Positions 6,877-27,103 of a stretch of DNA of 27,169 nt are shown here, one piece after another. Position numbers and translations under genes: made by a program. A model generated the notes under the pieces. That model was not told the DNA's origin and made no database searches. It worked only from the letters and a program-made list of their open reading frames with translations. Position 1 is the stretch's first letter. Every line of letters begins with the position of its first letter. Origin of the DNA: a virus; the IMG/VR virus record IMGVR_UViG_3300025082_000055, positions 1 to 27,169 of that record; one strand, written 5' to 3'.

Positions 6877-8637
6877 TTAACCTAGCAAGTCTCTCACGAC
6901 TACAAGACCGTACATATCAGGACGTACCATCTTCTTGGCGTAGCGAGTCATGACACCCTTACGGGGCACGAAGTCTTCGATACCAAAGATAGTAGGCGTT
7001 ACCTGGAGAGGTACATACGGGGCATATACAAAGCCGCTTTCAAGGAAAGAGCCTCCCTTACGACCAACAAGAACAACGTTCCTGGGGAAGTAGGGATCGA
7101 CGTATACATCCCATTTCTTGCTAAGAGCACCAGTCTTAACAGTCCCAACTGTGCCTCTTTCAGTGTCACCAGTGACATCGGCACGGAAACCGGAAGTGAA
7201 CTCGAGGATATTAGCAACCTCAGGACCACAAACGATAAAGTTGGCACCGCCGCGAAGGGTCTTACGATGAATCTGAGCAGATACATCATTAATGGTTTCG
7301 ACAAGAGTCTCATACCATTCAGACACAGTACCGGTAAAGTCAGCACCAAGCAAGTCCTCGTTGGCGGAACCGCCAGCAATTGCTTGGCCGCTTGCGCGGT
7401 TAACAAACTTGCCTGGGCGTCGAGACCAGTACTGAGTGCTAGCAGTAGCACCCTTAATAAGATCCTCAAGGATCTCACGGTCAATTTCAAGAGCAATCTG
7501 CTCTGAAAGGATACCGGTAAGCTCGACCTCGGCATCCAGATTATGGTAGGCATTTAGATCCTGACCAAGTTCTGGAGACCACTTAGCCTTAAGCTTCTTG
7601 GTGATTGCCGTGACAGACACACTGTCGACTTTGATGTCGATTTCAGGAATTGCTGTCTGATTTTCAAGGCCCCAAGAGCTTTGACCAACAACAACACCAA
7701 GTGCATTACCTGAAGAAGCAGCACCAGTGCCACCAAAGTCATCAGTTAGAGGATGATTGAACCCTCTATGAGCAATACCGGAAAGACAAAGTGACTCACT
7801 AAGTGAAACAGCGGTAACAGTACCAGTGGCAGCATATACTACCATAAGCTTTGTTTCTGCACCTACAGTCTCCGTGATGTCAAGTCGAGTGAGGCGGCGT
7901 ACATGTACACCATCTAACTCGGTGAGATCTCCCTGAGGTCCAATTGAACCAGTATCTTGAATAGCTACAAGGTTCTTCAGATTAAGCTGATCAAAAGCGC
8001 TAAGTGCAACAGTGCCAACACAATAAGCAGAACCTGAAAGATCCGGATCGAATCTAATAAGTTGCTCACCCTTATTTTTATAAGCAGTTGTACCCGTTGC
8101 ATTATCGGCACCAGCGGTACCTGAAGCAACAATGGTTAGGGTGGTCGCGACACTACCAGTTGGAGAAGCATAACCTTGGTTAAGGTTATAGAAACCTTCT
8201 TCACCAGTAGGATCAGTAAGATTGATACCACCAGTAATCTGTTGGCCAACCTTACCACCACCATAAAGTGATTCCTCGGCTTCCTGACCTAGCTTAGCAG
8301 ATAGAGTCTGGAAATCCAAGAAGAAGATAAGACCTGAGGGTAAGCTCATGGGCTGTACCGACACAAGGTCATTAGCAATTAATCCACCGAATACACGGCG
8401 GACGATTGGAAAAGCAACAGCAGCGAAGCCTTCTACATCAGCACCAGCCATGGTTGAAGCTTCACGAAGAAGCTCACGGGCTTGGTTCTCTAGAAGACGA
8501 GCCATCGTGCTCTTTTTTTGATCGTTTCCGATACCTTCCAAAAGTCCAGTTTTTTCCCACTTATCAAGTAGAGCAGTACCTTCCTTTTGGAGATCTCTAT
8601 CAACGATGCCTTCAGTTAGTTTTTGTAAAACAGACAT
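6877..8637 (-). CDS. Major capsid protein, T4 gp23-like
   Basis: This is the HK97-fold shell protein of the head, 586 residues from the ATG at 8637. That start is chosen because AAAGGAGG lies eight bases upstream; the longer frame from 8676 would overlap the scaffold stop and lacks such a site. After a helical N-terminal region come PIVRRVFGGLIANDLVSVQP (about 77-96) and SGLIFFLDF, hallmarks of gp23. The C-terminus has IFGIEDFVPRKGVMTRYAKK. A candidate maturation site for the prohead protease is L57-R58-E59|A60, near the known position in T4 gp23 (after residue 65). The gene sits directly after the scaffold gene, as in T4 22-23, and is followed by the terminator. Confidence 0.95.
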   Translation of the reverse strand: MSVLQKLTEGIVDRDLQKEGTALLDKWEKTGLLEGIGNDQKKSTMARLLENQARELLREASTMAGADVEGFAAVAFPIVRRVFGGLIANDLVSVQPMSLPSGLIFFLDFQTLSAKLGQEAEESLYGGGKVGQQITGGINLTDPTGEEGFYNLNQGYASPTGSVATTLTIVASGTAGADNATGTTAYKNKGEQLIRFDPDLSGSAYCVGTVALSAFDQLNLKNLVAIQDTGSIGPQGDLTELDGVHVRRLTRLDITETVGAETKLMVVYAATGTVTAVSLSESLCLSGIAHRGFNHPLTDDFGGTGAASSGNALGVVVGQSSWGLENQTAIPEIDIKVDSVSVTAITKKLKAKWSPELGQDLNAYHNLDAEVELTGILSEQIALEIDREILEDLIKGATASTQYWSRRPGKFVNRASGQAIAGGSANEDLLGADFTGTVSEWYETLVETINDVSAQIHRKTLRGGANFIVCGPEVANILEFTSGFRADVTGDTERGTVGTVKTGALSKKWDVYVDPYFPRNVVLVGRKGGSFLESGFVYAPYVPLQVTPTIFGIEDFVPRKGVMTRYAKKMVRPDMYGLVVVRDLLG

Positions 8638-8659
8638 ATTAAAATCCTCCTTTAAAGTT

Positions 8660-9673
8660 TTACGAAATGCCGGCAAGAACTTTCCATCGATCTTGTACCG
8701 GATTTGAAGTATTTGCCTTTTGTCGTTTAGGCAAAGTTGTTGAAGAGCGTCTCACAGCTTCGTTCAGTGATTGCGGAGTTCGCTTACGCTCACTACCCAC
8801 TGTACTTTGAAGTGTTTCGAAAATGACTTTCGCTTCTTCAACTGAACCGGCATTAGACAAGGCTTCGACAATTTTAGTTTTTTGTCGCTCATTCAGGGAG
8901 GTACTGCCCAAAACACGATTCGTGTATAAAAGCCTTGCATTCGAAAGATTAACTTCATGAAGTTTGTCTTTCGAATACAAAAGCAATTCTTTATATTTCT
9001 TATTTTGTTCAAAGAGTTTATTACCCTTTAAGGTTAAAGACTCAACCTTTTTTTCAAGTTCTTTTTCTCTGGCTGTGGGAACGGGTTTATCGTCGGACTT
9101 CTTTAAAACATAATCCGCGTCCTCTTTTTCGCCGCCCTGGGCCAAAAGGATATCTTCCAGCTCATTTTGAAGAGTTTGATTTGATGCGCCTCCAGCCTGA
9201 CCTGTCGGTACGGGCTTAACATCAACTGTTAATTTTTCAAGAATGCCCATTAAAGCTTCTTCATCTAATTCAAATTCTTCGCCTTCTTCAAGCTCTTCTT
9301 CTGAATCTTTTAGCTCTGGAGCGACTTCTTCTTCTCTATCAACCATGTCAGCTGCGTCGACTTCCTCTTCTTCCTCTTCTTCTGCCAGCTCTTCTGCCAG
9401 CTTTCCAAGATCTACTTCGATCTTGCCATCTTCCGACGTTGCCACCCCTTCAATATCTTCTCCATCTAGATCAGCTCTTGGAAGCTTTGGAATTTCCTCT
9501 TCTTCTTCCTCGTCATCAAGGTCTAGATCTTCTTCCGGTTGTTCCAGGATGGTCTTGACGGCTTCTTTGATCTCGCCCGAATATTTCTCGACGATCATTT
9601 TTTCTGCATTTTTCAACGCAGCATCTTTTAATGCTTCTGCATCAACAATAGCTTGTTCTAACATATCAGACAT
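8660..9673 (-). CDS. Prohead core scaffold protein, T4 gp22-like
   Basis: The product (337 residues) is a highly acidic, mostly helical protein, as expected for the internal scaffold on which the prohead shell assembles. Residues about 45-160 hold long Glu/Asp tracts. A coiled coil follows at about 200-255 (EKELEKKVESLTLKGNKLFE), then a conserved-looking RQKTKIVEALSNAGSVEEAK segment. Candidate cleavage sites for the prohead protease are I35-K-E37|A38 and L303-N-E305|A306. The position directly upstream of the capsid gene matches gp22. T4 gp22 is 269 residues, so this one is longer, mainly through the acidic tract. The ATG at 9673 has TAGGAG upstream. Sequence identity with gp22 is not obvious; the call rests on composition and location. 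Confidence 0.75.
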   Translation of the reverse strand: MSDMLEQAIVDAEALKDAALKNAEKMIVEKYSGEIKEAVKTILEQPEEDLDLDDEEEEEEIPKLPRADLDGEDIEGVATSEDGKIEVDLGKLAEELAEEEEEEEVDAADMVDREEEVAPELKDSEEELEEGEEFELDEEALMGILEKLTVDVKPVPTGQAGGASNQTLQNELEDILLAQGGEKEDADYVLKKSDDKPVPTAREKELEKKVESLTLKGNKLFEQNKKYKELLLYSKDKLHEVNLSNARLLYTNRVLGSTSLNERQKTKIVEALSNAGSVEEAKVIFETLQSTVGSERKRTPQSLNEAVRRSSTTLPKRQKANTSNPVQDRWKVLAGIS

Positions 9674-11438: not shown

Positions 11439-11654
11439 TTAATTAGTTTCTTCCTTATGTTTCAACTTATCTAGCGTGGCTTTTTTTCTCTTTGCTAGTT
11501 TACGTCTAATTTCTGAAGGCTTTTCATAATATTTTCTCTCGCGCAATTCTTCTATAATGCGCTCTTTTTTAATTTTTTTAATAAACCTTTTCAGCATTCT
11601 TTCAAAAGGTTCGTTTTTCTTTGGTGTGACTTCAACATTGATTGTTTTGTTCAT
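11439..11654 (-). CDS. rpsU: Phage-encoded small ribosomal subunit protein bS21
   Basis: The 71-residue product has the size of E. coli bS21 and its two signatures: NEPFERMLKRF (residues 14-24) and RERKYYEKPSEIRR (38-51), followed by a Lys/Arg-rich tail. bS21 sits on the 30S platform next to the 3' end of 16S rRNA, where it influences start-site recognition. Start choice: an in-frame TTG at 11672 exists, but the ATG at 11654 has GGAAGG ten bases upstream and overlaps the preceding stop as ATGA, so it is preferred. The gene is embedded between the core-like gene and virion surface genes, which points to late expression. Phage bS21 genes are known from aquatic phages; swapping into host ribosomes is their proposed role. 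Confidence 0.92.
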   Translation of the reverse strand: MNKTINVEVTPKKNEPFERMLKRFIKKIKKERIIEELRERKYYEKPSEIRRKLAKRKKATLDKLKHKEETN

Positions 11655-12076
11655 TTTATCATCGCCTTCCAAGCTCTGGAGTTTCCCATAAGTGACGAAA
11701 TATCAATACCCGGATCATGAGGTCGAACTCCTGCTAATGGACCCTGAGCAGGTGAATTTGCATTTGGATCTCCGGCCTGGGCTACGGCGGTGGTGCCTTC
11801 AAACAAATCAACTCCATTATAGGAATTCTGCCCAATAGCATCTAACATCTTCTTTCTTGTTTCGAGTAATTTCTGGCTTCTGTTTTGTTTTTCTTCTAGC
11901 TGCATTGTTTCTATATGATCGTCTTGTTTGTTTTCAACAAGCGTTTGTTGATTAACGCCTAAGCCTTTGACAACTTCAGAAACGACACCAGACAAAACAC
12001 CCTCTTCAAAAAGAGCTTCTCTTATACATTCTTTAATTATAGGTTTTAATACTTTCTTGAGTTCAGATTTTTTCAT
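11651..12076 (-). CDS. Unknown protein of the head module, possible prohead core component
   Basis: No family is recognised. The 141-residue product begins with a basic amphipathic helix, KKSELKKVLKPIIKECIREAL (a looser version of the recurrent peptide found in two other genes here), then a GVLSGVVSEVVKGLG segment, a charged helical middle (about 50-85) and a Pro/Gly-rich C-terminus. The start at 12076 overlaps the protease stop as ATGA, with AAGGAG upstream. In T4, small core proteins (gp67, gp68) are made next to gp21, so a core or internal head protein is a reasonable guess from location and helical content. ALFEE|G and similar sites could be protease targets, but this is speculative. Confidence 0.6.
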   Translation of the reverse strand: MKKSELKKVLKPIIKECIREALFEEGVLSGVVSEVVKGLGVNQQTLVENKQDDHIETMQLEEKQNRSQKLLETRKKMLDAIGQNSYNGVDLFEGTTAVAQAGDPNANSPAQGPLAGVRPHDPGIDISSLMGNSRAWKAMIK

Positions 12077-17950: not shown

Positions 17951-18529
17951 TTATTGCTCTTTCTTTCTCGTTACATTTTTGGCATGGTTCTTGCCCTTGC
18001 CAACTTCAAAATTCTTATTATAAGCAAGCCAATCTTTTGTAATTTTTTTAAGTCTCTCCTCGGAAGAAGAATCAGCATTTGATTCAAGTACTCCCGTGAG
18101 GCCACCTACCTTATAAAATTGTTTTGCTGTGACCCAACTACGAATGTTGCTCATGTGCTGAACAAGAATGTCTGCTTCGCCTTCCTTTGTTAAACTTAAA
18201 GGGTTTCCTGTAACGCTCTTATATTCTTTTTTAAGATATTTGGTGATATCGTTGATTCTAGAATTAATGTCGTTCTCAAATCGATTTCTATCATGCACTT
18301 CTTTTAATTTACACTCACTATGATATTCAACACAAATACTGTTTCCATAATATTTAACGTTGAAACCGTCCATAATTCTCGCATCAAGAACAGAGTCCCC
18401 ATCTTCCCTTCTCAGTCCCACCTTTTTTGCTTCACCATTGTGTACATAACGTTCATCATGAGCGCCGTCATAAGCATTAGCCGCAGCTTGGGAAATGCCT
18501 CTAATAATATCTAATACGTTATTTGCCAT
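17951..18529 (-). CDS. Unknown protein upstream of the terminase
   Basis: No named family is recognised. The 192-residue product starts NVLDIIRGISQAAANAYDGA, continues with a beta-rich part (GFNVKYYGNSICVEYHSECK, about 54-74), then a helical region with RINDITKYLKKEY, and has a basic C-terminal tail ending RKKEQ. The first 11 bases overlap the upstream gene. It occupies the place where T4 has the small terminase gene 16, and the helical middle plus basic end could fit DNA binding. However, no helix-turn-helix is evident, and the start resembles unannotated structural proteins of aquatic phages. A small terminase subunit or a virion protein are both open. Confidence 0.65.
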   Translation of the reverse strand: MANNVLDIIRGISQAAANAYDGAHDERYVHNGEAKKVGLRREDGDSVLDARIMDGFNVKYYGNSICVEYHSECKLKEVHDRNRFENDINSRINDITKYLKKEYKSVTGNPLSLTKEGEADILVQHMSNIRSWVTAKQFYKVGGLTGVLESNADSSSEERLKKITKDWLAYNKNFEVGKGKNHAKNVTRKKEQ

Positions 18530-18884
18530 AATTAATCTCCTTTAGAGCCTTTTTAACAATTTGTTTTATTTGTGATTTTGTAATTTTCATTTCGCCCAGA
18601 GACGGGTTGCGGCCGCCTGGATTGGTTTTTTCGGATGAGCGAGCGGCGCCTCGTACAACATCAGGTTCTGCAAACCTGTTTGGCTTCTGTCCAGTGCTCA
18701 TAAAATCATTAAGATCTAATCTTATATCATTCACGTCTTGATTAAGTCTGCGATATTCGCCAAACAGATGAGTTAACCATTGTTGATGCTTCATCAAGTG
18801 ATAGTCAGTTGATTCCGCTTCGGTTCGCGGATCACCAATAGCTTCTTTAATAATCTGCTTTAATTTTGATTTGGTGATTTTCAC
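18519..18884 (-). CDS. Unknown protein with the recurrent MKITKS peptide at both ends
   Basis: The product has 121 residues. It starts MKITKSKLKQIIKEAIGD and, from residue 99, repeats MKITKSQIKQIVKKALKE, ending five residues later. The middle is helical (WLTHLFGEYRRLNQDVNDIR, about 36-55) with a Pro/Gly/Arg-rich linker. The start is GTG at 18884, overlapping the upstream stop as GTGA; the initiator would be methionine. The first copy ends IKE|A, a match to the expected prohead-protease specificity, so an internal head protein carrying a cleavable targeting peptide is possible. The second copy has VKK in place of IKE and would not be cut. It may be a fused remnant of another such gene. Confidence 0.75.
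   Translation of the reverse strand: MKITKSKLKQIIKEAIGDPRTEAESTDYHLMKHQQWLTHLFGEYRRLNQDVNDIRLDLNDFMSTGQKPNRFAEPDVVRGAARSSEKTNPGGRNPSLGEMKITKSQIKQIVKKALKEINYGK
18546..18590 (-). repeat. Recurrent MKITKS peptide, copy 2 (C-terminal copy)
   Basis: Fifteen codons, starting with an ATG at 18590, encode MKITKSQIKQIVKKA inside the gene at 18519-18884. The DNA is clearly related to the copies at 18840-18884 and 27059-27103, with mostly third-position changes. It ends shortly before the gene's stop codon. Confidence 0.85.
18840..18884 (-). repeat. Recurrent MKITKS peptide, copy 1 (N-terminal copy)
   Basis: The first 15 codons of the gene (GTG start) encode MKITKSKLKQIIKEA. It shares the pattern MK[IL]TKSxxKQI[IV]K with two other sites in this window. 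The IKE|A end matches the L/I-x-E specificity known for T4 gp21. Confidence 0.88.
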
Positions 18885-19258
18885 TTATCAGGCCTCCAGC
18901 CAGACTTCCAACGTTCAGGGTTCCTCTCTACATAATTGGTATAACAGTCATAACAACAATCATATTTGCTCATGAACAGATCATCCTTAGAATTGAAAGA
19001 GTAAACACTACAAACAGGGCAAGTCCTACTACTACTCTTTGTAAGTAGTTTTTTGCCAATTAAAAAGCCGTCTTTTTCAACCTTTTCAACTTTCTCTCTT
19101 TTTTTGCGTTCTCGTCTTGTCAGCTCTTTAACTTGCTCAATATATTCTTTCTCTTTTTCTTCATCCCAATTTTTTTTAGGATGTTGTACAGTTTCGTCGC
19201 CATACTTTTTTCTTATGGCTCGTTCTATTTCTGCTATGTGGTTTGGGTCTCTTTTCAT
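18881..19258 (-). CDS. Small zinc-ribbon-like protein of unknown role
   Basis: The 125-residue product has a highly charged helical N-terminal half (Lys/Glu-rich, about 30-62) and a C-terminal cysteine cluster: CPVC (80-83) and CCYDCY (101-106), a likely four-cysteine zinc site. It ends WKSGWRPDK. No nuclease signature such as HNH is evident, because no suitable histidines flank the cysteines. I recall similar short unannotated proteins in aquatic phages but cannot name a family. Its 3' end overlaps the next gene as GTGA. The ribosome-binding site is weak (GGAATGGA, overlapping the end of the upstream gene). It might bind nucleic acid or another protein through the ribbon. Confidence 0.75.
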   Translation of the reverse strand: MKRDPNHIAEIERAIRKKYGDETVQHPKKNWDEEKEKEYIEQVKELTRRERKKREKVEKVEKDGFLIGKKLLTKSSSRTCPVCSVYSFNSKDDLFMSKYDCCYDCYTNYVERNPERWKSGWRPDK

Positions 19259-19267
19259 TTTAGTGAA

Positions 19268-22141
19268 TTAATCCATTCCATAATACTCAATAATAACTGT
19301 TAAGGTGCCGGCTGTTGAATTAGTGTTGCCGTTTCCTGTACCAGCATTACAAATGTATACATACTGATCTGAAGAGCCGTTTCTTACAGTGTCCCTGCAT
19401 ATCCAAACTTCTTTCAGATCGTTCACTAAATCAATATCTGATGCGCTAGCGCTGTCGGTGGAGTCGGTACCGGCGACGCCGTTTCCTAATATTTCAGTTC
19501 CACTAGAGACAGCAGTATCAGCACTGGTCCCAGACGTCGCAGACAATTGAATGTGTACAAGATGCGTTGATAAATTACTTGCAGTTTTTACAACAGCGGC
19601 GACACTAGTTATGATAGCATTTGCTGGAATTTTAACTCCTGGCAACTCAGCAATAACCATGGTGTTACCGGGGTAAGCATATCTAATGTCCTGATCTACG
19701 GAAATGATGTGTTTACCTGTTCCAATTCTAACGGTGCCGGCTGAATCAATTTTCATTCGTTCAGTTAACGTAGTAGAGCCATCGGGAGTTGTCATAAACT
19801 TTATTCTCCCCGGCATATCAGAACCTGGAGCGGAGTCGGCGGCATCACACTCTCCTATTATTGCGGCACCGAAGTCGAAGACGTCACCATCTTCGGTTCC
19901 TCCAAAAAAAATAGCACCATAATTATTACCGGCATCGAAGTCTGTGTCTTCACTCGTTAAAATTAATTCTCCAGAACTGTTGCCGCCGGCGTCTCCATGA
20001 ATATGAATAGATGTGGAATTGGCAGCGTATTTCGTCGCTGACATAGCATCTGTACCTCCAAAAAATCCAGTGGTGGCCAAGGCGGCTCCACTAGATCCTG
20101 TGACAGTTGTAAATATAGTGTCTCCCAGTTCATTGGCGTTGCCTGTGGCGCCGGCCTCCTGGGTTAAAGTTAAAGTTGCGGTAGAACGACTTACAGTAAT
20201 GCTGCTGCCGCCTGCAACGCCGCCATGGCCATTTACATGTTCTATTGCTGTTTCTATTTCTGCAGCAATCTCCACCGGAGTGGTCATCCCGTTTAGTTGG
20301 ATAACAACTTTGCCGCCAATGGCCGCACGGAGATCTTCTCCGCCGGTAAAATCACCTTCGGTCACCTGGCTTATATCGGTAGTAATAGCAGTATTGCCTG
20401 CAGTGCCATAACTGTCTTGTGTTAAAGTTATTGACTGTTCCCCATCATCTTCTGCAGGAACTGCAGAAACATTGATCGTCCCATTGTGACCGTTGGCATG
20501 TTCTATTGCGGCTTTAAGTTGAACGAGAAACTCTCTTTGAGTGTCCTCTGAAGATGCGATATTGATCGAAACCGCAATATCACCGTCGTCTTGCGTGCCG
20601 GGGTTCAGGGCTCCAGTATCGGAGCCACCACCAGTGAAATCAGAGACCGTTACGTTGGTGAGGCCACTCACCATCGGCCCGTTGCCGTTGCCGCCGGCCG
20701 TGTATTGTGTCACAGTCAGCACTCCAGACTCGTTATCAGACACTATAAAATCCGTTCGCTCATCGATACAAGCTTTAAGTGATGTAGCCGCTGCAGCAGC
20801 AGTACCTCCACCAAATTCGCGCGGGTCTGCAGTTAAATCTTGATACGTTTTTTTAACATATGATACATGTATGCCGGTAGTTGATCTGAGGGTGATAATC
20901 TCATCATTACTGGGTATGCCTGTAAAGGTTATTGTCGCTGTTGCGTTATCTGAGGCTTCTAACACATCGCCAGTCGCAACAGTGGTAAGCGTATCATCGC
21001 AGAGCCTATACACTCTTGTTGTACCATTAGTATTTGTGATCGTTATTTTCTCGCATTCAGTCATACCGGTTACGGCGTCACCATCATCAACCGTTATTGT
21101 TGCGGTGGCGGAGCCCCGGATGATTCCAGTGGCATCTCCGCCAGATGTGTTATCAAAAATATAAGTCTTTTCGTATGCACTCTTATCTTCAATTCTTAAA
21201 ATACCAGTATTGTTATATGTTTTATTCGGGAAAGGCGGTTTAGTAAAATCATCTAATGTAGTAGAGCCAACAATTATATATCCAACTGCTGCTCCTTGGG
21301 TTTTTCGTCCAAGACGAAGATCGCCCGAATGGTTAAGAGACATTCGTGTGCGCAATGTAGTAGAACCGGTCTCGCAAGTCTGAAAATATAAATTTGTTGG
21401 GAAATTGCTGCCGGCGTCAATGGCATTTCCGGAAAGTTCAGCTATTATCGCTGCGCCGTAATCCCAGCTGCCATCGTATCCGCCAAAATAAATAGAACCA
21501 AGCCTATCCCCAATATCAAAATCACGGTCTTCGCCTGATAAAATTAATTCTCCGGCTCCGTTGCCGCCTCCGTATTCGGCTTCGAAGCCGTATTCGGGCC
21601 TGGGGCCATCGCCATGGATATGAAGAGATACCCCATGTTTGGTGATGGATTGTGGGTAAGGTGTGCCAATTCCAATGTCACCATCACTCTTAATAGTCAT
21701 TCTCTGCGTCAACATACTAGTGCCGGCAGGAGTAGTCGAGAAGTTTAGCTTACCGGGTACATCAGTAGTTACATCCCAATCTCCATCTCCTTCGGCCCAG
21801 ACACTCGCTCCGAAATCGAAGCCGCCGGAGACGTTGTAACCAACTGGTTTCGGATTCGGGGTGGCGGCAAAATAAATTATACCCATGTTATCGTTGTTAC
21901 CGAAATCGTTATCATAATTTGAAAAGATAAGTTCTGGATCGTTATTTGCGCCGCCACGAGAATGCAGATGCATAGCACATGTCGAATCTGTATTCACTTT
22001 GATTGCCTCATCTGTACCTATTCCAATGACGGCAGTGTTGACCGGCACATCCAAGCGAAAGTGGATATTCATAGTTCGCAGGAACTTTAAAATATAGCCT
22101 CTTAGCTTACCAAGCGACCATTTGGATATATTGCTCGCCAT
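19268..22141 (-). CDS. Large modular fibre-like virion protein
   Basis: The product has 957 residues. Three related modules are present at about 57-160, 172-279 and 711-808. Each runs from an IHIHGD-like start through GELILTSEDTDFD, YGAIFFGG, DFGAAIIGE to a TTLTERMKID-S-G-VRIG end, the pattern of receptor-binding fibre shafts in many phages. Between the second and third modules lie three copies of another beta domain (about 401-505, 520-601, 605-697), each with an LKAAIEHANGH-like helix, an SITLTQ strand and an FTGG end. The last 150 residues form a distinct C-terminal domain. No S74 chaperone motif is seen. The ATG at 22141 follows AGAAGAG. A tail fibre or head fibre role is inferred. Confidence 0.78.
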   Translation of the reverse strand: MASNISKWSLGKLRGYILKFLRTMNIHFRLDVPVNTAVIGIGTDEAIKVNTDSTCAMHLHSRGGANNDPELIFSNYDNDFGNNDNMGIIYFAATPNPKPVGYNVSGGFDFGASVWAEGDGDWDVTTDVPGKLNFSTTPAGTSMLTQRMTIKSDGDIGIGTPYPQSITKHGVSLHIHGDGPRPEYGFEAEYGGGNGAGELILSGEDRDFDIGDRLGSIYFGGYDGSWDYGAAIIAELSGNAIDAGSNFPTNLYFQTCETGSTTLRTRMSLNHSGDLRLGRKTQGAAVGYIIVGSTTLDDFTKPPFPNKTYNNTGILRIEDKSAYEKTYIFDNTSGGDATGIIRGSATATITVDDGDAVTGMTECEKITITNTNGTTRVYRLCDDTLTTVATGDVLEASDNATATITFTGIPSNDEIITLRSTTGIHVSYVKKTYQDLTADPREFGGGTAAAAATSLKACIDERTDFIVSDNESGVLTVTQYTAGGNGNGPMVSGLTNVTVSDFTGGGSDTGALNPGTQDDGDIAVSINIASSEDTQREFLVQLKAAIEHANGHNGTINVSAVPAEDDGEQSITLTQDSYGTAGNTAITTDISQVTEGDFTGGEDLRAAIGGKVVIQLNGMTTPVEIAAEIETAIEHVNGHGGVAGGSSITVSRSTATLTLTQEAGATGNANELGDTIFTTVTGSSGAALATTGFFGGTDAMSATKYAANSTSIHIHGDAGGNSSGELILTSEDTDFDAGNNYGAIFFGGTEDGDVFDFGAAIIGECDAADSAPGSDMPGRIKFMTTPDGSTTLTERMKIDSAGTVRIGTGKHIISVDQDIRYAYPGNTMVIAELPGVKIPANAIITSVAAVVKTASNLSTHLVHIQLSATSGTSADTAVSSGTEILGNGVAGTDSTDSASASDIDLVNDLKEVWICRDTVRNGSSDQYVYICNAGTGNGNTNSTAGTLTVIIEYYGMD

Positions 22142-22147
22142 TCTCTT

Positions 22148-22312
22148 CTAGTCTCCCTCTTCCTCTTCTTTCTTTATCTGTTCTTCCCAAAGTTTGCTAA
22201 TTACTTCCCATGTGTGTTCCTCTCCAATGACATCATACATTTCGTGAAGATTTCTCCAAGCTTCATCCAAAGTTAGTTTATTTTTATTATATTCAACACA
22301 TATTAAACACAT
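22148..22312 (-). CDS. Small acidic protein of 54 residues, unknown function
   Basis: A short frame of 54 codons fills the gap between the lysis-like and fibre-like genes. It starts MCLICVEYNKNKLTLDEAWR, has a helical Trp-rich middle (HTWEVISKLWEEQ) and ends in a Glu-rich tail. The ATG at 22312 is one base after the upstream stop (TAATATG), with GGGAGAG nine bases before it, and its stop is six bases before the fibre-like ATG. Exact packing, a good ribosome-binding site and protein-like composition support it being real. The CxxC near the start could bind metal. No family is recognised. Confidence 0.78.
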   Translation of the reverse strand: MCLICVEYNKNKLTLDEAWRNLHEMYDVIGEEHTWEVISKLWEEQIKKEEEEGD

Positions 22313-22313
22313 A

Positions 22314-22775
22314 TTAATTGCTCTCCCTTATTTCTACTGCCGCATAAAATATTGCAATTGATGTAACAATGCCTGCTACAATCCCTCCAGCGAACCACCA
22401 ATGAGAATTTTTGTTTGGCCTCTCTAAAGCAAATTTCTGGAGCCTGTTGTTTTCCTCATCTTTAATTTTTAAAATTGAATCATATTTTTGTTTCAAAAAG
22501 TCAACTTCAACCTTCACTGTCGAAACCAAAAGATCACATTTTATCTTTTCTTTTTGTTCCATGTGATTAATTCTCAACCTACATTGTTCAGAATTATATT
22601 CTTTCTCTGCAACTGATTGCGCAACTGCAGCAGAATTAAAAAGGACGCCAGCAAAAGGAGCGACTTCTCCTTGGTTCATTGGTTTGATTTTTGGAACATC
22701 ATCAGCAAAAGCTAGAACTGGAAAAGTTACAAGCAAAACAATTGCTACTATTTTATTCAACAATTTCAAAACCAA
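22314..22775 (-). CDS. Exported membrane protein, possible spanin-like lysis component
   Basis: The 153-residue product has a signal peptide (about 1-25: VAIVLLVTFPVLAFA before DD), an external region with NQGEVAPFAGVLFNSAAVAQ (about 34-53), a coiled-coil stretch (about 70-115) and a C-terminal transmembrane segment (WWFAGGIVAGIVTSIAIFYAAV, about 126-147). I recall the APF-GVLF pattern in phage envelope proteins near lysis genes. The start is a TTG (22775, or the in-frame TTG two codons later), with AAGGAG upstream; no ATG exists before residue 33. The gene overlaps the previous one by 23 bases. No lipobox cysteine is seen, so a classic o-spanin is not proven. Confidence 0.6.
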   Translation of the reverse strand: MVLKLLNKIVAIVLLVTFPVLAFADDVPKIKPMNQGEVAPFAGVLFNSAAVAQSVAEKEYNSEQCRLRINHMEQKEKIKCDLLVSTVKVEVDFLKQKYDSILKIKDEENNRLQKFALERPNKNSHWWFAGGIVAGIVTSIAIFYAAVEIRESN

Positions 22776-23157
22776 ACGACTCCTTAACTAACTTTGCCAG
22801 TTCTTCTGGTTCATTTGAATGTTTCTCTACGATCTCTTTAACTCTTTTCTTCTTATCCTTATCGAGAGTTTCATTCTTTTTCTTTAATTCTACCTCAATT
22901 TTTTCAATTGTTTCATTAAAAACTTTATTTAAATTTTCTTTCTCTTTCTTTTCTTGCTCATGTACTCTATTGAGAACATCAATTTGTTTTTTATAACTGT
23001 CGCTCTTTATTTCTAGAACTCCAAGAGCTGCCGCTCCATCTTTTCTAAAAACAAGCCAAAGAACAAGAGTATAGATTACAACTACTGGAAAATACCAATA
23101 AGTTTTTAACCAAAGCCAGCTCTTTTCTACAGAGAGCTTAAAGGCTAGCCAGCTCAT
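22753..23157 (-). CDS. Membrane-anchored coiled-coil protein, i-spanin-like
   Basis: The 134-residue product has one N-terminal transmembrane segment (YWYFPVVVIYTLVLWLVF, about 20-37) followed by a long Lys/Glu-rich coiled coil (about 50-110). This topology resembles inner-membrane spanins, which link inner and outer membrane at the end of lysis, and some phage prohead or injection proteins. Its start overlaps the upstream stop as ATGA, and its end overlaps the next gene by 23 bases. Together with its neighbours it forms a three-gene cluster of small membrane proteins. The sequence does not match a spanin family I can name, so the role is inferred from topology and order. Confidence 0.55.
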   Translation of the reverse strand: MSWLAFKLSVEKSWLWLKTYWYFPVVVIYTLVLWLVFRKDGAAALGVLEIKSDSYKKQIDVLNRVHEQEKKEKENLNKVFNETIEKIEVELKKKNETLDKDKKKRVKEIVEKHSNEPEELAKLVKESFGFEIVE

Positions 23158-23357
23158 TGTTCTTTAAATCCGTGCTTCCAAGCAGTGGCCATATCAACAA
23201 GTGCCTGTGTGCCAATATATGCCAACGTGACAGCGACCCAATTATCACTTGTGACCGAGCCATGAATGGCCAGTCCAGTTGCTGTCATCCATGCCAAAAA
23301 TTTTCTACTTATAAACCTTTCGACGTGCTTATCCATAAAAGCTTTCATTTTAGCCAT
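23154..23357 (-). CDS. Small membrane protein, holin-like
   Basis: The product has 67 residues. A basic amphipathic start (KMKAFMDKHVERFISRKF) precedes two weakly hydrophobic helices, FLAWMTATGLAIHG (about 20-33) and NWVAVTLAYIGTQALVDMAT (39-58), and a charged end. Two helices with a short connecting loop and this size fit small holins that permeabilise the inner membrane. The ATG at 23357 has AAAGGAG seven bases upstream, an excellent site. It is the first gene of the membrane-protein cluster. The holin label is a guess from size, topology and context; a structural membrane protein cannot be ruled out. Confidence 0.55.
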   Translation of the reverse strand: MAKMKAFMDKHVERFISRKFLAWMTATGLAIHGSVTSDNWVAVTLAYIGTQALVDMATAWKHGFKEQ

Positions 23358-23392
23358 AATAATTCTCCTTTAACGCTACACTATATCTAGTT

Positions 23393-23593
23393 TTATTTTT
23401 CTAAAAACATCTCATATTCTTCTAGACTCTCGCCAAGTTTTTCAAGAACATATTCTTTTTCATTATATGAAGCAAATTTATCAATATGTATTTCTTTATA
23501 TTGAGATGCTAATTCGGCAACCCTTTCTAACTTAGCAACCTTCTGTAAAAGTTCTTCTATACTATCGCTGATAAACTGCGTTGCTGCTTGCAT
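23393..23593 (-). CDS. Small helical protein downstream of the recombination nuclease
   Basis: This 66-residue product appears fully helical and acidic, with a heptad-like ISDSIEELLQKVAKLERVAEL stretch early on and a Glu-rich end (EKLGESLEEYEMFLEK). No family is recognised. The ATG at 23593 has AAGGAGG close upstream, one of the strongest ribosome-binding sites in the window, 15 bases after the preceding gene. That placement suggests it is made at higher levels than the nuclease from the same transcript. A regulatory or assembly partner is possible, but nothing in the sequence shows it. Confidence 0.75.
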   Translation of the reverse strand: MQAATQFISDSIEELLQKVAKLERVAELASQYKEIHIDKFASYNEKEYVLEKLGESLEEYEMFLEK

Positions 23594-23607
23594 TATATGT
23601 TTCCTCC

Positions 23608-26600
23608 TTAATAATTAACATAAGCAAAATTACCTTTCTTCTCAATCTCAATGGTCATATCTGCACAATCTTTCAAAGTGTCCAAATGAGAAATAAGAAG
23701 AACAGTTTTAAAATATGATTTAACCATATCTAAAATTCTAATAAACCCTTCCATATTTTCTTCGTCTAAAGCCGTTGCTGGCTCGTCAAGAATAAACAAG
23801 TCTGGCTTTGGAAGACTGGAAACGTTCAGTAGCGCCAGGCGGATGGCCATGGCTGCAATTGTTTTTTCAGAACCTGAACCTAATTCAATTGGCCTCGCGT
23901 CAAATTTGGGATGTTTAATAAAGATTTCAAGCTTCTTATCTTCTGCCTCGAAGAAAACTTCGAAATCAACAATATTCACCAATATTTTTGCCACCTCTGT
24001 ATTGATGATTGGAAGACGCTTTTTGATAATATCGTAAGCAATTCCGTTTGAATGCATGCATCTCATAAATAAATCATAAGCAGCATACTCCGCGCGCAGA
24101 TCATGAAGCTCCTGCTTGTCGTCTTCAAAGTTTTTAAGAACTTGCTCGACTGAACCATGCTCCTTGGAGAGTTCAATAAGGTGGCTTTGACATTCTGATA
24201 AAGTATTTTTTTCTTTTGTTATAGCTCTCAAAAAGTTATCTTTCTCAAAATTTAATGCTTCAAGATTTTCAATTGCCATTTTGTTCTTGTTATATTCTAC
24301 TATCTTTTCGTTTAATTGTTCAATTTCTTTTTTATATGCAACAATTCTTGTTTTATTTTTTTGAATCTCCAACTCATAAGAAGAGTTTTCAGAATTTAAT
24401 ATATTTTGTCTTTCAAGGAGCTTATCATGTTTTTGGATATGTTCTTCGATTTTTTCTGGATTTAATTGAAGAATCTCAGAAGATGTTTTTACCTCTTCTC
24501 CTCGCAAGCCCTCAATCTCTCGCTTTACTTCATCGAGTTGTTTTAGTGCTCCGTAAGCATCTTTAATGAATTGGCAATGAGAAAACTCTTCTCCGCAAGG
24601 AACTTCTTCTAGAAGCGAAGCCTTCCCTTCTTTAACCTTTAGTTTGGTTTCATGTATTTTTATATCGTTACAAATTGCGTTTAGCTGGTTTTGTTTTTCA
24701 ACAACAATAGACTTATTTTTTTTAATGTCCTCGATATCAAAATCGTCGTTTAGAAAACTTTCTATTTTATTCAAAAGCCCGTTGTTGTTTTTAATGTTTT
24801 CAGAAAATTTATTATTTCTTCCAACTAATAAACCTTTTTCTTTTTCATTTTCTTCTAAAGACTTTTCCACTTCGTCTATATTAATAATCTCAACTGGAAT
24901 AATATTTATTCTTTCATTAACTTCTTCGACCTTGCTTCGATATATATCTATATTTTCTGTTATTTGGTCGCAAGAATTTTCTTGCTTTTTAATTTCACAT
25001 TCAATTGCGAAAAGTTTTTCATTTGCCTCCTTGATTTGTTCATCAAATTCTGTACCTTCTAGTCTTTTCAACATCCCTCTCAGATCTGATGCGTCGTCTT
25101 TTGCTAGTTTAAATTTTCTTTCAAACATTTCAAGATCTAGAAATTTAGCAAGGATCTCCTTTCTTCTAGTAGAGCCCTCGCTAATAAACATAAGGGATCC
25201 AAGCTGAGAAGCCATCGATGTGAAAAGAAAGTCATCCATTGTTCCAAACATCTTTCTTATGTTTTTATCAGTATCATTTCTCGATAATCCGTTTAAACTA
25301 ATACTCTCTCCAACGACTTCATCATATTTCGAGAAATTAATATCCGTCTTCGCCTCAACTGTTGTACTACCATGAAGTTTCTTTTCATATTTTTCTGAGA
25401 TTCTTTCTATCTCGTAGACATTGTGCCCGACTGTTATTTCTGCCTTTCCTCGACAATTATCTTTTGTTTGGTTTATTAAATGAAGATTTTTACGATTATT
25501 TTTAGAAGTCGAGTTGTACACAGTGTATAGTAAACTGTCAATAACGCTCGACTTTCCTGAAAAATTCTTTCCAAATATTCCGACAACTCCATTTAAATTC
25601 TCAAAATTAATCTTGTTTTTCTCACCATAATTAAATAAATTATCCCATTCAATGCTTTTAAGTTTCCAGTTGATATTTCTAGCGATCTCTTCGTCCTCTT
25701 CTACAACGGAACTATATTTCGTATTCAAATCTAATACCTTTTCTGATATATCGCCAGTAGGATTATAGTCCTTTAGATAATCCTTAATCAGACTTTTCTG
25801 AACTGCCGAGTCTCTTAAATTTTCTTGAAATATATTATTAATTGAATCAGAGATATCTGTCCTATCTCCAGAAGCTCTATTTAAAAATGTTACACTTTCT
25901 GGTTTAAATCTAGCCTTTGCTACATCGACAGATTTCTTTAATACGTCTAATGAAAGATTATTGTTAGAAACCAGACGAAGGCGGCCGCCTTCGGGAACTT
26001 TTGTTTTGTTCGGGATTCTTCCTTTTGGTGTAAGGTTGACTGTAATAAACGGTTTTGGATTTATAAAAGAAACATGCTCAACGTCAAAATCATTTTGATC
26101 ACGAATGTCCCATATCAACAAACCTTTATCATTAGACTCTCCATGATTTTGCTGAATTGTTGAGCCAGGATAACGAATGGTTCCATCGCGATTTAATATC
26201 TGATTTGTCTTATGTATGTCACCAAGAAAAGCGAAATCAAATTCATCAAAAATTGATATATCATTTTCGCCATGTTCCATTGTCCACCCAAGATCTGTCT
26301 TTACTCCGGAGATGGATCCGTGATAGAGAGCGATGTTAATTTTGTCGATATCAGTTGGTTTGATCCAATCATCTTCATCAAATACTGATAATATGTTTAA
26401 AGTGAATTCATCATTCAACACTGTCTCACCAGAATCCTTCAGGAGGCACAGATTTGGGTGTTCTAGGGCCTCAACGATAGGAGTGATGGCATCCTGCCTA
26501 CTGGAATTTCTAAGGTTCCCATCGTGGTTTCCAGGGATTATATAAGTGGGTGCTATATCCGCCAAATTCTTAAGAAAATTTGACGCCATCTCAAAGTATT

Positions 26601-26763
26601 CAGGACTCAGCTGAGTCTTTGTATGTGCGAGATCTCCACAGTGAATAATGTAATCTACTTTTTCTTCTCGCAGTTTTTTGTATATCTGTTCAAATATTGA
26701 GCGATATTCATAGTGGTATTTTAAGTTGCGGATATGCGTATCCGCAAGATGGGCGAACTTCAT
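23608..26763 (-). CDS. Mre11-Rad50 (SbcD-SbcC; T4 gp47-gp46) fusion recombination nuclease
   Basis: One uninterrupted 1051-residue chain holds both halves of the recombination nuclease that processes DNA ends. The N-terminal phosphodiesterase (about 1-240) has LADTHI (D8, H10), HCGDLAH (D44), PGNHDGNLR (N79, H80), ALYHGS (H148) and FLGDIHK (H184). After a linker, the ABC ATPase starts near 368 with Walker A FGKNFSGKSS (397-406). A long coiled coil follows, with C723 and C730 at its likely apex. The second lobe has signature LGSGSEKT (961-968), Walker B LFILDEPATALD (989-1000) and an H-loop ISHLD (1024-1028). T4 uses two genes (47 and 46; 339 and 560 residues). The ATG has TAGGAGA upstream and its own sigma70-type promoter. 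Confidence 0.95.
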   Translation of the reverse strand: MKFAHLADTHIRNLKYHYEYRSIFEQIYKKLREEKVDYIIHCGDLAHTKTQLSPEYFEMASNFLKNLADIAPTYIIPGNHDGNLRNSSRQDAITPIVEALEHPNLCLLKDSGETVLNDEFTLNILSVFDEDDWIKPTDIDKINIALYHGSISGVKTDLGWTMEHGENDISIFDEFDFAFLGDIHKTNQILNRDGTIRYPGSTIQQNHGESNDKGLLIWDIRDQNDFDVEHVSFINPKPFITVNLTPKGRIPNKTKVPEGGRLRLVSNNNLSLDVLKKSVDVAKARFKPESVTFLNRASGDRTDISDSINNIFQENLRDSAVQKSLIKDYLKDYNPTGDISEKVLDLNTKYSSVVEEDEEIARNINWKLKSIEWDNLFNYGEKNKINFENLNGVVGIFGKNFSGKSSVIDSLLYTVYNSTSKNNRKNLHLINQTKDNCRGKAEITVGHNVYEIERISEKYEKKLHGSTTVEAKTDINFSKYDEVVGESISLNGLSRNDTDKNIRKMFGTMDDFLFTSMASQLGSLMFISEGSTRRKEILAKFLDLEMFERKFKLAKDDASDLRGMLKRLEGTEFDEQIKEANEKLFAIECEIKKQENSCDQITENIDIYRSKVEEVNERINIIPVEIINIDEVEKSLEENEKEKGLLVGRNNKFSENIKNNNGLLNKIESFLNDDFDIEDIKKNKSIVVEKQNQLNAICNDIKIHETKLKVKEGKASLLEEVPCGEEFSHCQFIKDAYGALKQLDEVKREIEGLRGEEVKTSSEILQLNPEKIEEHIQKHDKLLERQNILNSENSSYELEIQKNKTRIVAYKKEIEQLNEKIVEYNKNKMAIENLEALNFEKDNFLRAITKEKNTLSECQSHLIELSKEHGSVEQVLKNFEDDKQELHDLRAEYAAYDLFMRCMHSNGIAYDIIKKRLPIINTEVAKILVNIVDFEVFFEAEDKKLEIFIKHPKFDARPIELGSGSEKTIAAMAIRLALLNVSSLPKPDLFILDEPATALDEENMEGFIRILDMVKSYFKTVLLISHLDTLKDCADMTIEIEKKGNFAYVNY

Positions 26764-26789
26764 GGGTCTCCTATTTTGCCTCTCTTGTT

Positions 26790-26818
26790 ACTATAACACA
26801 AAGCATTTTGCTTGTCAA
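26790..26818 (-). promoter_or_regulatory. Sigma70-type promoter of the recombination nuclease gene
   Basis: On the coding strand, TTGACA (26818-26813) and TATAGT (26795-26790) are separated by 17 bases: a perfect -35, a five-of-six -10 and ideal spacing. Transcription would start near 26783, giving a leader of about 20 bases that contains the Shine-Dalgarno TAGGAGA before the ATG at 26763. It lies in the only gap between the upstream small gene and the nuclease gene. Confidence 0.85.
26801..26813. promoter_or_regulatory. Palindrome inside the promoter spacer, possible operator
   Basis: AAGCA-TTT-TGCTT is a perfect inverted repeat with five-base arms lying between the -35 and -10 boxes. A repressor bound there would block RNA polymerase. 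Short palindromes arise by chance in AT-rich DNA, so this is a weak call. Confidence 0.3.
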
Positions 26819-26821
26819 GAA

Positions 26822-27103
26822 TTATTTTGCAAGCTCATTTAATCTTATTTCAATTTGTTCTATTTTATCTCTAATTTGCTGATCAAGTTCCGTCATCATC
26901 GGTGTGATATCCGCTGAAAGTTGATCAACAAAATCATTATAAAGTAGGCGAAGTTCCGTTGCCTCATTTGGGGCATACATATCTTTAGGCTCAACGTCTC
27001 CCCATGTCCCAAGTCTGCGATATCTTCCGGCAGCTGTCTCTTCCGTAACAGTAGTTAACTCTTCTTTGATAATTTGTTTAAGTTGTGATTTTGTTAGTTT
27101 CAT
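26822..27103 (-). CDS. Unknown protein with N-terminal MKLTKS peptide
   Basis: The 93-residue product starts MKLTKSQLKQIIKEEL, matching 12 of 14 positions of the start of the gene at 18519-18884, then has a short variable linker, a GRYRRLGTWGDVEPKDMYAP segment (about 26-45) and a helical C-terminal half (about 48-93, ELRLLYNDFVDQL and KIEQIEIRLNELAK). The match between otherwise unlike proteins suggests a targeting or docking peptide. The sequence after IIKE is E rather than A, which may be a poorer protease site. GAGGGAG precedes the ATG, and the start overlaps the upstream stop as TAATG. No function is known to me. Confidence 0.8.
   Translation of the reverse strand: MKLTKSQLKQIIKEELTTVTEETAAGRYRRLGTWGDVEPKDMYAPNEATELRLLYNDFVDQLSADITPMMTELDQQIRDKIEQIEIRLNELAK
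27059..27103 (-). repeat. Recurrent MKLTKS peptide, copy 3
   Basis: The first 15 codons of the gene encode MKLTKSQLKQIIKEE. The DNA is similar to the copies at 18840-18884 and 18546-18590 but differs mostly at silent positions, so protein-level selection or old duplication is more likely than recent copying. Confidence 0.88.

What the first reader, a model, noticed from the sequence alone, without database searches (positions are those of the whole stretch)
18519..27103. Recurrent N-terminal peptide MK[IL]TKSxLKQIIKE: candidate capsid-targeting sequence cleaved by the phage protease
Two otherwise unlike proteins (18519-18884, 26822-27103) share nearly the same first 14 residues, and a third (11651-12076) starts with a looser version. 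T4 internal head proteins carry a short N-terminal capsid-targeting peptide of about ten residues, ending in I-A-E and removed by gp21. Here the peptide is an amphipathic helix ending I-K-E, followed by A or E, and this phage encodes a gp21-like protease. The same I-K-E|A occurs in the scaffold. The peptide may therefore mark a set of proteins packaged into the head and injected into the host.
Basis: partly seen in the sequence, partly recalled or inferred. Interest (0 to 1): 0.72.

Follow-up and report, generated by a model that had tools for sequence, protein, structure and literature searches.

The report
Marine phage head-packaging tag peptide
A short, repeatedly reused protein start (and sometimes end) in marine T4-like phages looks like an address label that loads many unrelated small proteins into the virus head before a viral protease cuts it off, which would mark hundreds of unknown phage proteins as cargo carried in the virion and possibly injected into the host.

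Summary
The window (a 27-kb IMG/VR fragment, all genes on the minus strand) has two unlike proteins starting MK[IL]TKSxLKQIIKE. The first has a second, weaker copy at its C-terminus. A third, looser start follows the gp21 protease gene. A 22-residue profile of the peptide finds 293 unrelated protein bodies in uncultured marine T4-like and jumbo phages. It is dense around gp21 genes (83 hits in 1.1 Mb) and absent from 1.7 Mb of control viral contigs; one exact match lies in 85,000 cellular genomes, on an apparent phage contig. Conservation stops near residue 22, where a second [LI]-x-E site, the published T4 gp21 motif, occurs in 45% (background 2-5%). Copies also sit inside or at the end of proteins. 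Three bodies that carry the peptide have homologues among mass-spectrometry-detected virion proteins of cyanophages S-SCSM1 and S-CREM2. In S-CREM2 all five proteins that start with a T4-shaped capsid-targeting peptide are in the virion. Best reading: a diverged capsid-targeting sequence, a new variant of the T4 system, removed by gp21. Cleavage, sufficiency for head entry and injection are inferred, not shown.

The parts
27038..27103 (-). N-terminal tag (residues 1-22) MKLTKSQLKQIIKEELTTVTEE of the 93-aa protein; core 1-14 at 27062-27103
   Evidence: member of the 30-family N-terminal cluster found without the motif
26822..27037 (-). Body of the first tagged protein (predicted packaged cargo); no family match, no relative in cultured phages
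18819..18884 (-). N-terminal tag (residues 1-22) [V/M]KITKSKLKQIIKEAIGDPRTEA, GTG start; only strict [LI]xE near the N-terminus is IKE14|A
18591..18818 (-). Body of the second tagged protein (predicted packaged cargo); no convincing family match
18522..18590 (-). C-terminal second, weaker copy of the tag, MKITKSQIKQIVKKALKEINYGK
   Evidence: profile hit iE 0.02 in identical relative L125
11651..12076 (-). Probable prohead core protein directly after gp21; looser tag MKKSELKKVLKPIIKECIREALFEEG; 7 [LI]xE sites against 1.8 expected
   Evidence: the gene at this position has the canonical tag in relatives L130-L142 and L152
12073..12690 (-). gp21-type prohead protease, proposed processing enzyme; own FLTE|A site at residue 24
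   Evidence: phrog_207 E=1.3e-54; relatives in 2531 phage records; site
8660..9673 (-). Scaffold/core protein (gp22 position), proposed partner of the tag; IKE|A at residue 37
   Evidence: Position and composition; no PHROG match; site
6877..8637 (-). Major capsid protein gp23; conserved start is ATG at 8637; four conserved [LI]xE sites in its propeptide, the last LLRE|A
   Evidence: phrog_138; alignment of 24 relatives

Best explanation
The peptide is a diverged capsid-targeting sequence (propeptide) of marine T4-like phages. Proposed steps: (1) tagged proteins are made with the other head proteins; (2) the ~22-residue helix binds the scaffold core (gp22-like) of the growing prohead, so any attached protein is enclosed [inferred from T4]; (3) when gp21 becomes active it cuts after [LI]-x-E, at IKE14 and/or the second site near residue 22, freeing the body and releasing the core's grip [cleavage inferred; matching sites shown]; (4) the freed bodies stay in the DNA-filled head and may be injected with the genome [inferred]. 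Internal and C-terminal copies would let one polypeptide be held and cut at several places. Shown: reuse on hundreds of unrelated bodies, link to gp21-bearing phages, cleavage-motif enrichment, and virion presence of homologous bodies in cultured cyanophages.
For: Motif-blind N-terminal recurrence: 30 of 260 families near gp21. Profile hits 83/1.11 Mb near gp21, 0/0.68 Mb pelagic podoviruses, 0/1.06 Mb random viral contigs (Poisson). Tag genes on the gp21 strand in all 19 gp21-bearing records, often 9-16 kb upstream. 293 unrelated bodies; second [LI]xE at 20-24 in 45%, against 2-5% background and 10% shuffled. Tagged gene immediately after or before gp21. Bodies are not replication, metabolism or tail proteins. 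gp21 specificity L/I-X-E and CTS biology: PMC9026906, PMC3012670. Virion links: DUF3008 body under tag MKLTKSKLKQIIKEEL is 57% identical over 54 aa to S-SCSM1 gp93, annotated virion protein, itself ending RTFKEFLEYIE; bodies of tagged L101 and L023 match virion ORFs S-CREM2 160, S-SCSM1 gp29 and S-CREM2 137. All five S-CREM2 ORFs with a T4-shaped CTS are in its 52-of-219 virion proteome (p=6e-4).
Against: No direct proteomics on any MKITK-type phage. 11 of 30 long K-tag and 8 of 12 R-tag records show no gp21; none of these has a T4-type sheath either and some end at the terminase, so they look truncated, but another protease type is not excluded. Bodies acidic. No late-promoter enrichment, though gp23 shows it. 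P1' after E14 is mostly E, whereas conserved capsid sites have G/N/A. Hydrophobic moment not significant. S-SCSM1 gp30 starts MKTFKQFMSE but is not in the virion list. The virion homologues carry other tags, the T4-shape test on S-CREM2 was framed after seeing its virion list, and virion presence does not separate head from tail.
Confidence: 0.8

Rival explanations
1. The tag is a structural docking or oligomerisation helix for another virion part (tail, baseplate or neck) or for a phage-made complex in the cell, and is never removed.
For: Virion detection of homologous bodies does not separate head from tail; helix-like heptad of hydrophobic residues; internal copies.
Against: Conservation stops at an enriched [LI]xE site; tagged genes flank gp21 and the head genes; no tagged protein matches a tail family.
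Confidence: 0.1
2. A DNA-level gene-start cassette (ribosome site plus start codons) copied between genes by recombination; the peptide itself has no role.
For: Within one record identical residues use identical codons more often than expected (0.68 against 0.44).
Against: Upstream DNA is conserved only at the Shine-Dalgarno site; the same peptide is spelled with many codons and with K or R; internal and C-terminal copies cannot act as gene starts.
Confidence: 0.04
3. A membrane- or host-targeting N-terminal helix acting inside the infected cell (not packaging).
For: Cationic start with a hydrophobic face; bodies include DnaJ, pentapeptide and LRR domains that could act on the host.
Against: Copies at C-termini; restriction to gp21-bearing phages; homologous bodies in virions.
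Confidence: 0.05

Closest known systems
T4 capsid-targeting sequence of internal proteins IPI/IPII/IPIII (MKTYQEFIAE|A), removed by gp21
   Same: Short N-terminal peptide shared by otherwise unrelated small proteins, starts MK, ends [LI]-x-E, encoded with a gp21 protease (T4 sequences read; PMC9026906, PMC3012670).
   Different: Different sequence and about twice the length; two candidate cut sites; reused on hundreds of bodies; internal and C-terminal copies; acidic rather than basic bodies; genes near the head cluster rather than scattered.
T4-shaped tags on virion-associated proteins of cyanophages S-CREM2, S-SCSM1, S-CRM01, P-SSM2 (e.g. MKNFSSFLTE|A on cytidylyltransferase)
   Same: Recurrent N- or C-terminal tags ending [LIF]-x-E on proteins of unlike function; some bodies homologous to MKITK-tagged bodies.
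   Different: 10 residues, T4 spacing (aromatic/L at 4, F at 7, L/F at 8, E at 10) instead of the KxxLKQIIKEE helix.
phiKZ/SPN3US giant-phage ejection-protein propeptides
   Same: N-terminal propeptides on many packaged proteins, cut after Glu by a gp21 homologue (PMC5694885).
   Different: Propeptides mostly over 100 residues and not one shared short peptide.

Membership tests
T4-type capsid-targeting sequence (CTS) | Same short terminal peptide on otherwise unrelated proteins | tested here: met
   293 unrelated bodies; motif-blind clustering of 30 families
T4-type capsid-targeting sequence (CTS) | Peptide ends at a gp21 cleavage motif L/I-x-E | tested here: met
   E14 site in 96% (partly built into the search), independent second site at 20-24 in 45% against 2-5%
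T4-type capsid-targeting sequence (CTS) | Encoded by a phage with a gp21-type prohead protease | tested here: met
   Window; 19 of 30 long records, rest look truncated; zero hits in control viral contigs
T4-type capsid-targeting sequence (CTS) | Tagged proteins are present in the virion head | tested here: inconclusive
   Only through homologous bodies with other tags in S-SCSM1 and S-CREM2 virions; no proteome of an MKITK phage
T4-type capsid-targeting sequence (CTS) | Peptide is removed by gp21 | not testable with these tools
   Needs mature N-termini from virions
T4-type capsid-targeting sequence (CTS) | Peptide alone is enough to carry a foreign protein into the prohead | not testable with these tools
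   Needs a fusion experiment
T4 internal proteins IPI-III | MKTYQEFIAE-like sequence with aromatic at 4, F at 7 | tested here: not met
   Sequence is MK[IL]TKSxLKQIIKEEL; so it works like a CTS but is not this peptide
T4 internal proteins IPI-III | Small basic proteins | tested here: not met
   Bodies small but acidic, about -6 charges per 100 residues

The most novel reading that the evidence does not exclude
Marine T4-like and jumbo phages use a portable head-import tag, placed at the start, middle or end of proteins, to load a large and fast-changing set of proteins (many per genome) that gp21 releases inside the head and that are injected as host-takeover or anti-defence effectors; the tag makes this hidden effector repertoire readable from sequence alone, and the class extends to sister tags such as WRxFLxE and FDLKKFLxENKLT.
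Probability: 0.55. Interest if true: 0.82.

Novelty: new variant of a known kind. Interest (0 to 1): 0.68.

Why it matters
In T4 a handful of tagged proteins are known, and at least one (IPI) blocks a host restriction enzyme. If this tag does the same job, hundreds of otherwise unknown proteins of abundant uncultured ocean phages gain a predicted place (inside the head) and a likely moment of action (the first seconds of infection). The tag gives a sequence rule for finding injected phage proteins and a short candidate peptide for loading proteins into phage heads. I found no paper in the held open-access library that describes it.

Tried and rejected
Search of the 22-aa peptide against cultured phages gave nothing, probably because of low-complexity masking; both window bodies have no relatives there. 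ADP-ribosyltransferase family in tag-bearing records: none. A 461-aa protein of L423 looked ADP-ribosyltransferase-like by eye, but no family, no PDB sequence match and a useless single-sequence model (pLDDT 32), so the idea is dropped as evidence. Virion NMNAT/cytidylyltransferase is absent from tag-bearing records, so that orthology bridge failed; the DUF3008 and cysteine-domain bridges replaced it. Late-promoter enrichment: none. Hydrophobic-moment test: not significant. PADLOC: only weak hits. No virion proteome paper found for phage immuto.

Full report
OBSERVATION. The record is a 27,169-base IMG/VR fragment of a T4-like myovirus with its annotated phage genes on the minus strand: protease phrog_207, portal phrog_213, terminase, capsid phrog_138, sheath phrog_23. 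The two proteins at 26822-27103 and 18519-18884 share the start MK[IL]TKSxLKQIIKE and nothing else. Exact KQIIKE-coding DNA occurs only there. The second protein ends with another, weaker copy, MKITKSQIKQIVKKALKEINYGK. The third protein (11651-12076) lies directly after the protease gene and starts with a looser form.

HOW COMMON. To avoid motif bias I took the 80 nearest gp21 loci, called genes and collapsed related bodies: among 260 families the first 16 residues gave 409 matching pairs, against 0-1 at four other offsets, and the dominant cluster (30 families) is this peptide. A 22-residue profile gives 83 hits in 1.11 Mb around gp21 and none in 0.68 Mb of HTVC010P-like podoviruses or 1.06 Mb of random viral contigs. 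Across all loci 293 unrelated bodies carry it. A second class uses arginine (MKITRRQLRRIIRE), in loci of somewhat higher G+C.

LINK TO gp21. Of 30 long tag-bearing records, 19 have gp21 and in all 19 the tag genes lie on the gp21 strand, often 9-16 kb upstream. The other 11 lack a T4-type sheath as well, and three have a T4-like terminase within about 6 kb of a contig end, so they look like fragments. Eight of 12 R-tag records also lack gp21; G039 reads as a jumbo-phage fragment that ends soon after its terminase. A different protease in some of them is not excluded. In relatives the gene directly after gp21 (L130-L142, L152), and sometimes the one before it, carries the canonical tag.

ANATOMY. 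Information content is high to residue 16, moderate to 22, then drops to background. An independent second [LI]-x-E site sits at residues 20-24 in 45% of bodies (61% if any hydrophobic residue is allowed), against 2-5% elsewhere and 10% after local shuffling. P1' residues at the second site (G, E, A, N, D) resemble the conserved capsid sites (G, G, N, A) more than the E that follows E14, so I favour cutting near residue 22 in many proteins. In the two window proteins only IKE14 fits strictly. gp23 of 24 relatives has four conserved [LI]xE sites in its propeptide, the last LLRE|A. About 17 distinct ORFs carry two copies, with the second internal or C-terminal; the 1071-aa L174 protein shows about five by eye. 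Bodies are small (median about 108 aa) and acidic. Their few recognised domains are DUF3008, DnaJ, pentapeptide and leucine-rich repeats; none is a replication or tail protein.

WHAT IS KNOWN. T4 gp21 cuts after L/I-x-E. The first ten residues of IPIII suffice to bring foreign proteins into the head, with targeting at positions 4 and 7 and processing at 8 and 10; T-even internal proteins are diverse anti-host proteins that share only the CTS; T4 Alt is also cut at its C-terminus (PMC9026906; PMC3012670; PMC9958956). T4 sequences were read here: IPII/IPIII MKTYQEFIAE|A, IPI MKTFKEF...ITE|A.

EXPERIMENTAL BRIDGE. Cyanophage S-CREM2 has a published virion proteome (52 of 219 ORFs; PMC10665884). 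Its ORFs with annotated starts of T4-CTS shape are 6 (SAM hydrolase), 13, 14 (kinase), 136 and 154 (cytidylyltransferase); all five are in the virion (p=6e-4). The shape was taken from T4, but I had already seen the virion list, so the p-value is indicative only. The paper mentions neither targeting nor propeptides. The S-SCSM1 virion NMNAT, checked afterwards as a prediction, starts MKSFLQFLKE|A; P-SSM2 and S-CRM01 homologues start MKSFSQFLTE and MKLFNQFFKE. S-SCSM1 gp30 has such a start but is not listed as virion. Comparing 454 bodies that carry the MKITK tag with both cyanophage genomes, every match below E 1e-4 falls in an unknown ORF detected in the virion, although such ORFs are only 17% and 8% of the two genomes: S-SCSM1 gp93 (DUF3008, 57% and 48% identity to tagged L008 and L019), S-CREM2 160 and S-SCSM1 gp29 (cysteine-rich domain, tagged L101), S-CREM2 137 (tagged L023). 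gp93 itself ends RTFKEFLEYIE, a T4-like tag at the C-terminus. Homologous cargo under a different tag is what an exchangeable address label predicts.

VERDICT. It works like a T4 capsid-targeting propeptide (0.8). It is not the T4 peptide itself (sequence tested, not met), so it is filed as a new variant. Targeting, cleavage and injection remain to be shown; the isolate immuto offers a direct test.

Noticed in passing
L179, L183, L164, L166 (just after gp21) and others: Other recurrent N-terminal peptides also ending hydrophobic-x-E: M[SN]DWSSFxxDKxxMDSWRKFLxE (6 families) and M[SP]EMKLIMExWR / MKKMLNEWKQFLNE forms; the first occupies the same position after gp21 as the MKITK tag does in other phages.
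   Followed up: partly
L423 (PBSV01000031.1, Opitutia MAG): A contig binned as Opitutia looks like phage: several adjacent proteins start MKLLIENWRQYLKE, MRLLLENWRRFLAE, MEKFIEDWRRYLVE and MKITKSKLMKIIKEEL; one 461-aa protein resembles ADP-ribosyltransferases by eye only.
   Followed up: partly
L426/L427 (Synechococcus phage S-CREM2): Virion-detected enzymes (SAM hydrolase, kinase, cytidylyltransferase, Cas9-annotated nuclease) carry T4-like tags; the Cas9-annotated protein has ...LRFASFMAE|A near its start and ends KTFRDFLN.
   Followed up: yes
L123, L424 (Flavobacterium phage immuto): Three proteins start with FDLKKFLxENKLTxNSxxL-like sequence (333, 99, 182 aa) and one has EQFRRMQKLAGIITE: possible further tag classes in an isolate.
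   Followed up: no
L174:6343-9555, L135:2229-4112: Large proteins near gp21 with repeated tag copies between domains, polyprotein-like.
   Followed up: partly
window 11439-11672 (-): By eye a ribosomal protein bS21-like gene in the head cluster; Microcystis phage Mel-JY01 has an annotated RpsU in the same place.
   Followed up: no
window 8637-8676 (-): The listed TTG start of the major capsid gene is probably wrong; nearly all aligned relatives begin at the position of the internal ATG at 8637.
   Followed up: yes
window 23608-26763 (-): A single 1051-aa ORF looks like fused gp47/gp46 (SbcD/SbcC-type) recombination proteins.
   Followed up: no
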